Part shown: piece after piece, positions 11,131-49,575 of the stretch
Layout: each line of letters begins with the position of its first letter
Position numbering within the stretch: the first letter of the stretch is position 1
Source of the DNA: Candidatus Marsarchaeota G2 archaeon ECH_B_1
GTDB lineage: Archaea; Thermoproteota; Thermoprotei_A; Marsarchaeales; Marsarchaeaceae
Assembly (NCBI GenBank): GCA_003019535.1
Contig: NEXG01000001.1
Location: forward strand, 230,153-294,152
DNA: 64,000 nucleotides
Direction: 5' to 3'
Notes under the pieces: model-generated
Told to the model about the DNA's origin: nothing
The model's input: the letters and a program-made list of their open reading frames with translations, nothing else
The model's database searches: none
Translations under genes and position numbers: made by a program

Positions 11131-11218
11131 TGGGCTCGGAGGGATTTGAACCCTCGACCTCCCGGTACCCAAGTGCCACTTATCAGCCGAGCGCTCTACC
11201 AAACTGAGCTACGAGCCC
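11131..11218 (-). tRNA. tRNA-Ile (GAU) with 14-nt intron
   Basis: The minus strand folds into a full cloverleaf: acceptor GGGCTCG/CGAGCCC with discriminator A, D stem GCTC/GAGC, T stem GAGGG/CCCTC with TTCAAAT loop. The anticodon loop is CTGATA-A with GAT at 34-36. A 14-nt intron (11167-11180) sits at the canonical 37/38 site; the anticodon stem closes as CTCGG/CCGGG once it is removed. A BHB fold with bulges TA^A and GT^A places the cuts exactly there. A GCTTAAATC box lies about 30 nt upstream. Confidence 0.93.
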
Positions 11219-13026: not shown

Positions 13027-13320
13027 GGCGGCGAGCCACTGGACGGCCTCCGGACCGTGGGTCTGAGGACGCTCCGCCCACCGTGTGGGAGCGCGACGCC
13101 GTAAGGCGTTTGGGGAGACCCAAGCCTCTGGCACAGAAACGCTCGGCGAAACCAATACGGATGACAATGATGGTTCACTGAGGACATGGTTTCGCCTTGA
13201 AACGGTCATGCCGCGCGGTGCAAGGGTCTATGCGCCGATGAGCCCCCACATGAGGCGCAGGTAACCCGCATAGTCAAATGCCGTCTAAAACTCAAGGCGG
13301 GCTACGGGTGGCACGCCGCC
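13027..13320 (+). ncRNA. rnpB: RNase P RNA
   Basis: The ends pair as a P1 helix, GGCGGCG at 13027-13033 with CGCCGCC at 13314-13320. Inside, the conserved RNase P regions appear in order: a CR-I-like GTCTGAGGACGCTCCGCCC, a central ACAGAAACG, the CR-IV-like AGGTAACCC, and the 3' CR-V-like CAAATGCCGTCTAAAAC with AAGGCGGGCTAC. This is the catalytic RNA that trims tRNA 5' leaders, working with Rpp29 (5090-5314) and other proteins. The CR-I sequence departs slightly from the usual GAGGAAAGTCC. A minus-strand ORF across this region is a shadow. Confidence 0.88.
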
Positions 13321-38437: not shown

Positions 38438-38542
38438 GCCGGGGTGGCCGAGTGGTTAAGGCGGCAGACTCGAGATCTATCTGCAGAGGCTGGAAATCTG
38501 CTGGTCCTTGTGGCCGCGCGGGTTCGAATCCCGTCCCCGGCG
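38438..38542 (+). tRNA. tRNA-Ser (CGA) with 21-nt intron
   Basis: The plus strand folds as a class II tRNA: acceptor GCCGGGG/CCCCGGC, discriminator G, long variable arm and T stem GCGGG/CCCGT. The anticodon stem GCAGA/TCTGC closes a CTCGAGA loop (CGA) only if a 21-nt intron at 38475-38495 is removed, assuming the 37/38 site. Because the intron begins with ATCT and exon 2 also begins with ATCT, the exact cut can slide by up to four bases. The central helix of the BHB has a mismatch, so the motif is relaxed. Confidence 0.88.
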
Positions 38543-46342: not shown

Positions 46343-46441
46343 TGCGGGGAGTGGGATTCGAACCCACGCAGGCCTTCGCCGGCAGATAACTCATATGGGA
46401 TCTTGAGTCTGCTCCCTTTGACCAGGCTCGGGCATCCCCGC
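46343..46441 (-). tRNA. tRNA-Leu (CAA) with 14-nt intron
   Basis: The minus strand folds as a class II tRNA with acceptor GCGGGGA/TCCCCGC, discriminator A and T stem GTGGG/CCCAC. The anticodon stem GCAGA/TCTGC closes the CTCAAGA loop (CAA) after removal of a 14-nt intron at 46388-46401, at the canonical 37/38 site. The BHB central helix is perfect (CTCA with TGAG). A TTATAAAAG box lies at 46459-46467, about 22 nt upstream. The acceptor and T arms match tRNA-Leu (UAG) at 49476. Confidence 0.93.
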
Positions 46442-49403: not shown

Positions 49404-49475
49404 CATTCAAAGCTCTCTTAGTTCGCCTCTAAACAAGCAATAAATTTTTATCAGGTTAAAATGTTTTTGTTCTAT

Positions 49476-49575
49476 GCGGGGATGGCCGAGCCTGGTCAAA
49501 GGCGCGAGTGAGTGCTCCGCGAAGCTTAGGACCTCGTGCGGTAGCGCTTCGTGGGTTCGAATCCCACTCCCCGCA
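49476..49575 (+). tRNA. tRNA-Leu (UAG) with 15-nt intron at non-canonical site 30/31
   Basis: The plus strand is a class II tRNA with acceptor GCGGGGA/TCCCCGC and discriminator A. No anticodon stem closes unless 15 nt (49509-49523) are removed between the fourth and fifth bases of the 5' anticodon strand. The spliced stem is then CGAGG/CCTCG with loop CTTAGGA (TAG). The flanks form a strict BHB: a 4-bp central helix CGCG/CGCG, 3-nt bulges AG^T and AA^G each cut after the second base, plus inner and outer helices. An ATTTTTATC box lies 28 nt upstream. Confidence 0.93.

What the first reader, a model, noticed from the sequence alone, without database searches (positions are those of the whole stretch)
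49476..49575. tRNA-Leu (UAG) has a non-canonical intron at 30/31 with a strict BHB fold
The anticodon loop cannot close as the gene is written. Removing 15 nt between the fourth and fifth stem bases gives a perfect CGAGG/CCTCG stem and TAG anticodon. The intron flanks show a 4-bp CGCG/CGCG central helix, two 3-nt bulges each cut after the second base, and outer and inner helices. Non-canonical archaeal introns need a splicing endonuclease of the broad-specificity type, so this is a prediction about the organism's endonuclease. Simple tRNA finders may misread the anticodon.
Basis: partly seen in the sequence, partly recalled or inferred. Interest (0 to 1): 0.6.

Follow-up and report, generated by a model that had tools for sequence, protein, structure and literature searches.

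The report
Off-site intron in archaeal leucine tRNA
A leucine tRNA gene of a little-known archaeon is interrupted by a real 15-base intron at an unusual but already catalogued place, conserved in its relatives, and the genome carries the kind of splicing enzyme expected to remove it; it is a good but ordinary new example.

Summary
The gene (49476-49575, +) is a class II tRNA. It closes only if 49509-49523 (TGAGTGCTCCGCGAA) is removed between positions 30 and 31, giving stem CGAGG/CCTCG and anticodon UAG; the border is unambiguous. The flanks form a strict bulge-helix-bulge: 4-bp CGCG/CGCG centre, bulges AG|T and AA|G. All five held relatives of the same family have the same intron site, with 13-17 nt introns; four distinct sequences occur in all. 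Exons vary at only 5 of 85 columns, and the short inner helix is re-made in each allele. It is the only Leu(UAG) gene found, and CUA is common. The genome has 15 introns in 45 tRNAs: 13 at 37/38 and two at 30/31, the second in tRNA-Thr(UGU), also conserved. By sequence, the splicing endonuclease is the crenarchaeal heteromeric (alpha-beta)2 type. Corrections: a strict BHB does not by itself require that type; the inner helix is 2 bp with a 4-nt loop; the BHB uses D-stem bases, so it and the D-arm exclude each other; and unaided folding does not favour it. Position 30/31 is catalogued for archaeal tRNA introns. New member of a known kind; no RNA data could be checked.

The parts
49476..49508 (+). 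5' exon of tRNA-Leu(UAG), positions 1-30
49509..49523 (+). 15-nt intron TGAGTGCTCCGCGAA between positions 30 and 31
   Evidence: same site in five relatives
49524..49575 (+). 3' exon, positions 31-73, with loop CTTAGGA (anticodon TAG), 14-nt variable arm and T arm; no CCA encoded
49500..49502 (+). BHB outer helix 5' strand AGG (tRNA 22-24, overlapping the D-stem 3' strand)
   Evidence: read from the sequence
49503..49506 (+). BHB central helix 5' strand CGCG (tRNA 25-28)
49507..49509 (+). 5' bulge AG|T, predicted cut after the second base
49510..49517 (+). inner hairpin GA-GUGC-UC of the intron
   Evidence: four different alleles in the family all pair
49518..49521 (+). BHB central helix 3' strand CGCG (intron)
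   Evidence: invariant in six genomes
49522..49524 (+). 3' bulge AA|G, predicted cut after the second base
49525..49527 (+). BHB outer helix 3' strand CTT (tRNA 32-34)
49441..49451 (+). A/T-rich TATA-like stretch about 25-35 bases upstream of the tRNA, candidate promoter
   Evidence: inspection only; identical in the same-genus genome G001

Best explanation
This is the organism's tRNA-Leu(UAG) gene, carrying a 15-nt archaeal tRNA intron at the non-canonical site 30/31. Proposed mechanism: the transcript presents a strict BHB made of exon bases 22-28 and 32-34 plus the intron. An (alpha-beta)2 EndA cuts each 3-nt bulge after its second base, and an RtcB-type ligase joins G30 to G31, so that the anticodon stem CGAGG/CCUCG and the D-stem can form. 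Shown: gene anatomy, conservation and enzyme genes. Inferred: cutting, joining and their order.
For: Unique best excision, giving fully paired acceptor, anticodon and T stems, a 3-bp D-stem, a CTTAGGA loop and an unambiguous border. ARAGORN calls Leu(UAG) only after splicing. All five held family relatives have an intron at the same site (15, 13, 13, 17 and 17 nt); four different intron sequences occur counting the window's own (shared by G001), while exons vary at 5 of 85 columns and the CGCG strand is invariant. Intronless orthologues in the same class carry the same loop CTTAGGA (L122-L125; L196). It is the only Leu(UAG) among 45 tRNA genes over the cut-off, and CUA is 22 per 1000 codons in 19 window genes. 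EndA alpha has the catalytic Tyr, His and Lys and the loop KPK aligned to A. pernix K44-P45-R46. EndA beta candidate: PF02778 above cut-off, and its family profile hits A. pernix beta at 8e-19 and P. aerophilum beta at 2e-14. RtcB at E 1e-173. A second conserved 30/31 intron lies in tRNA-Thr(UGU).
Against: No RNA data. Unconstrained folding prefers another structure (-47.5 against -41.0 kcal/mol with the BHB imposed at 37 C), and the BHB needs the D-stem open. The inner helix is only 2 bp here. The genome is a 93%-complete assembly with 4% contamination, so another Leu(UAG) gene could be missing.
Confidence: 0.95

Rival explanations
1. The gene is a decayed tRNA pseudogene with an insertion, and another tRNA reads CUA.
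For: The assembly is incomplete (93%), so a second gene could be missing.
Against: All stems are well formed after excision; exons are nearly invariant in six genomes while introns diverge; no other UAG anticodon was found among the tRNAs.
Confidence: 0.02
2. The 15 nt stay in the mature tRNA as an insertion in the anticodon stem.
For: None found; only that no RNA data are available.
Against: The insert separates the two halves of the anticodon stem and has BHB geometry; intronless orthologues with the same anticodon loop exist.
Confidence: 0.01
3. The intron is real, but it is cut as a relaxed motif with the D-arm kept folded, not as the strict BHB.
For: The strict BHB uses positions 22-25 and so excludes the D-stem; the enzyme is of the type that accepts relaxed motifs.
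Against: Keeping the D-arm together with a shortened central helix is less stable in the folding model (-36.8 against -41.0 kcal/mol at 37 C); the central CGCG pairing, including C25, is conserved in all six genomes.
Confidence: 0.2

Closest known systems
Archaeal BHB tRNA introns at position 30/31
   Same: Site and BHB motif; 30/31 is listed among known non-canonical positions (PMC4090602), and borders lie between the second and third bulge residues (PMC4307357).
   Different: This host tRNA (Leu UAG) and this lineage; I found no report of either in the held papers, but catalogues of single introns were not available to me.
Split tRNA-Lys(CUU) joined at 30/31 in Nanoarchaeum equitans and Staphylothermus
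   Same: Same junction with a canonical BHB (PMC3218864).
   Different: Those are trans-spliced halves; here the intron is in cis and 15 nt long.
Sulfolobus tokodaii tRNA-Leu(GAG) and Aeropyrum pernix non-canonical introns, with spliced RNA determined experimentally
   Same: Introns outside 37/38, one of them in a leucine tRNA, removed at BHB-like sites (PMC4307357).
   Different: Different isodecoders and organisms; the exact position in Leu(GAG) is only in a figure that is not held.
(alpha-beta)2 EndA of Aeropyrum pernix (3P1Z) and Pyrobaculum aerophilum (2ZYZ)
   Same: Separate catalytic and structural subunits; catalytic residues and loop lysine aligned.
   Different: The beta candidate is distant from solved crenarchaeal betas in single-sequence search (E 0.006-0.07) and matches the structural half of alpha'2 enzymes better; the complex was not modelled.

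Membership tests
Archaeal tRNA intron (BHB type) | Excision restores a complete tRNA | tested here: met
Archaeal tRNA intron (BHB type) | 4-bp central helix flanked by 3-nt bulges at both borders (strict BHB) | tested here: met
Archaeal tRNA intron (BHB type) | Flanking outer and inner helices | tested here: met
   Outer 3 bp with one G-U; inner 2 bp in the window, up to 3 bp closing a 4-nt loop in relatives
Archaeal tRNA intron (BHB type) | Intron evolves faster than exons at a conserved site | tested here: met
Archaeal tRNA intron (BHB type) | Spliced RNA observed | not testable with these tools
   No RNA reads available
(alpha-beta)2 crenarchaeal EndA | Catalytic subunit with Tyr, His, Lys triad | tested here: met
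   Y110, H118 and K149 aligned with A. pernix alpha; H118 aligns with the residue mutated in 3AJV (H133A)
(alpha-beta)2 crenarchaeal EndA | Crenarchaea-specific loop with conserved Lys followed by Pro and a basic residue | tested here: met
   K36-P37-K38 aligned with K44-P45-R46
(alpha-beta)2 crenarchaeal EndA | Separate non-catalytic beta subunit | tested here: met
   191-aa protein, PF02778 above cut-off, PF01974 below cut-off, family profile hits known betas
(alpha-beta)2 crenarchaeal EndA | Heterotetramer that cuts relaxed BHBs | not testable with these tools
   Needs purified protein

The most novel reading that the evidence does not exclude
The conserved 30/31 introns in tRNA-Leu(UAG) and tRNA-Thr(UGU), whose BHBs are built from D-stem bases, force splicing to precede D-arm folding, so that the intron acts as a folding-order checkpoint kept by selection throughout this family.
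Probability: 0.07. Interest if true: 0.45.

Novelty: new member of a known kind. Interest (0 to 1): 0.2.

Why it matters
It corrects the annotation of an essential-looking tRNA that a simple finder misses or misnames. It also adds a poorly sampled archaeal lineage to the link between heteromeric EndA with the crenarchaea-specific loop and introns outside 37/38. Conservation of site with turnover of sequence gives a small natural test of which parts of the motif the enzyme needs.

Tried and rejected
Unconstrained RNA folding as proof of the BHB: it favours other structures, so it is not used as support. Apparent 8-11 nt 'introns' in tRNA-Leu(GAG), Ser(GCU) and Ser(GGA): these are ordinary variable arms. 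Tracing the intron beyond the family: four same-order genomes (62-80% complete) gave no Leu(UAG) with the pattern used, so the age of the intron is undecided. Two papers on EndA (PMC3241643, PMC5829648) are not held.

Full report
What is there. The window lies in an archaeal assembly of 2.55 Mb (93% complete, 4.4% contamination). Rfam places a tRNA at 49476-49575 with 40.7 bits and an unresolved insert in the anticodon arm. ARAGORN in the default run misses it. Scanning every single excision, the best by far removes 15 nt, 49509-49523, between positions 30 and 31; this holds for cloverleaf score alone and with BHB geometry added. The product has acceptor GCGGGGA, anticodon stem CGAGG/CCTCG, loop CTTAGGA and a long variable arm, and ARAGORN calls it Leu(UAG). 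The splice border cannot be shifted by even one base without changing the product.

Motif. Central helix CGCG/CGCG, bulges AG|T and AA|G, outer helix AGG/CUU, inner GA/UC around a GUGC loop. Shuffling the insert with exons fixed gives the same grade of motif in 0.37% of trials. The central and outer helices use tRNA positions 22-28, which include the whole 3' strand of the D-stem (23-25), so the BHB and D-arm cannot coexist (read from the sequence; energies). The folding program alone does not choose the BHB: -47.5 kcal/mol free, -41.0 with the BHB imposed, -36.8 with the D-arm kept and a shortened central helix. This does not count against splicing by an enzyme that captures the motif, but it means that the fold was not predicted independently.

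Comparison. All five family relatives that the collection holds have the gene, with introns at the same site of 13, 15 or 17 nt. Counting the window, four intron sequences occur: GAGUGCUC, GUUUAC, GGCGGAUGCC and GCGUAACUGC between bulge and central strand, each self-complementary at its ends, while CGCG is invariant. Exons vary at 5 of 85 columns. More distant class members have an intronless Leu(UAG) with the same CTTAGGA loop. This pattern of fixed site, fixed exons and drifting intron is the strongest evidence that the 15 nt are an intron.

Genome context. Of 45 tRNA genes above the Rfam cut-off, 15 have introns: 13 at 37/38 and two at 30/31. The second 30/31 case is tRNA-Thr(UGU), also a strict BHB, present in four family relatives with 19 or 21 nt introns. 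No other Leu(UAG) gene was found, and CUA makes up 22 of 1000 codons in 19 window genes, so splicing is probably needed for normal decoding (inference).

Enzyme. PF01974 finds one catalytic EndA, 172 aa at contig C1:184500-185018; its best solved relatives are the alpha subunits of A. pernix and a related enzyme, 2CV8. Tyr110, His118 and Lys149 align with the triad, and K36-P37-K38 with the crenarchaea-specific loop K44-P45-R46 (loop described in PMC6379350 and PMC12397907). A 191-aa protein at C1:41844-42419 matches the structural half of EndA, passes PF02778, and its family profile finds the known beta subunits. So the genome has the heteromeric type by sequence. An RtcB ligase is present.

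On the endonuclease inference. One review states that only (alpha-beta)2 and epsilon2 enzymes efficiently remove relaxed motifs (PMC6379350); another states that genomes with alpha4 or alpha2 enzymes have introns only at the canonical site (PMC4090602). A strict BHB at 30/31 therefore fits the broad enzyme but does not prove a need for it. The prediction came true; its necessity is not shown.

Known or new. Position 30/31 is in the published list of archaeal non-canonical intron sites (PMC4090602), split tRNA-Lys genes join there (PMC3218864), and a leucine tRNA of S. tokodaii has an experimentally mapped intron outside 37/38 (PMC4307357). tRNAscan-SE 2.0 reports 673 non-canonical introns in 217 archaeal genomes (PMC8450103). 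This is a well-supported new member of a known kind.

Noticed in passing
L033:1501-1593 (G000 contig C1:185088-185180, -): tRNA-Thr(UGU) has a 19-nt strict-BHB intron at 30/31, conserved in four relatives (19 or 21 nt); it lies about 70 bases beyond the EndA alpha gene, convergent with it.
   Followed up: yes
L187, L188, L136 (same-order genomes G006, G007, G009): tRNA-Leu(CAA) seems to carry two introns, a non-canonical one at about 32/33 and one at 37/38.
   Followed up: partly
window 11131-11218 (-), 38438-38542 (+), 46343-46441 (-): tRNA-Ile(GAU), Ser(CGA) and Leu(CAA) with 14, 21 and 14 nt introns at 37/38; ARAGORN in its default run misreads the first and misses the other two.
   Followed up: yes
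L159 (G000 contig C40:325-414, -): Low-scoring tRNA-like sequence (20.9 bits) with a mismatched acceptor stem and apparent UCA anticodon; probably a pseudogene.
   Followed up: no
L014 and L023 (G000 contigs C11 and C53): Two different tRNA-Thr(GGU) genes, one with and one without an intron; one contig may be contamination.
   Followed up: no
L149 (G000 contig C4:89103-89245): tRNA-Trp(CCA) has a 69-nt intron at 37/38, long enough to hold a guide RNA as in some archaea; not examined.
   Followed up: no
window 13031-13316: Archaeal RNase P RNA, full length, 196.6 bits.
   Followed up: no
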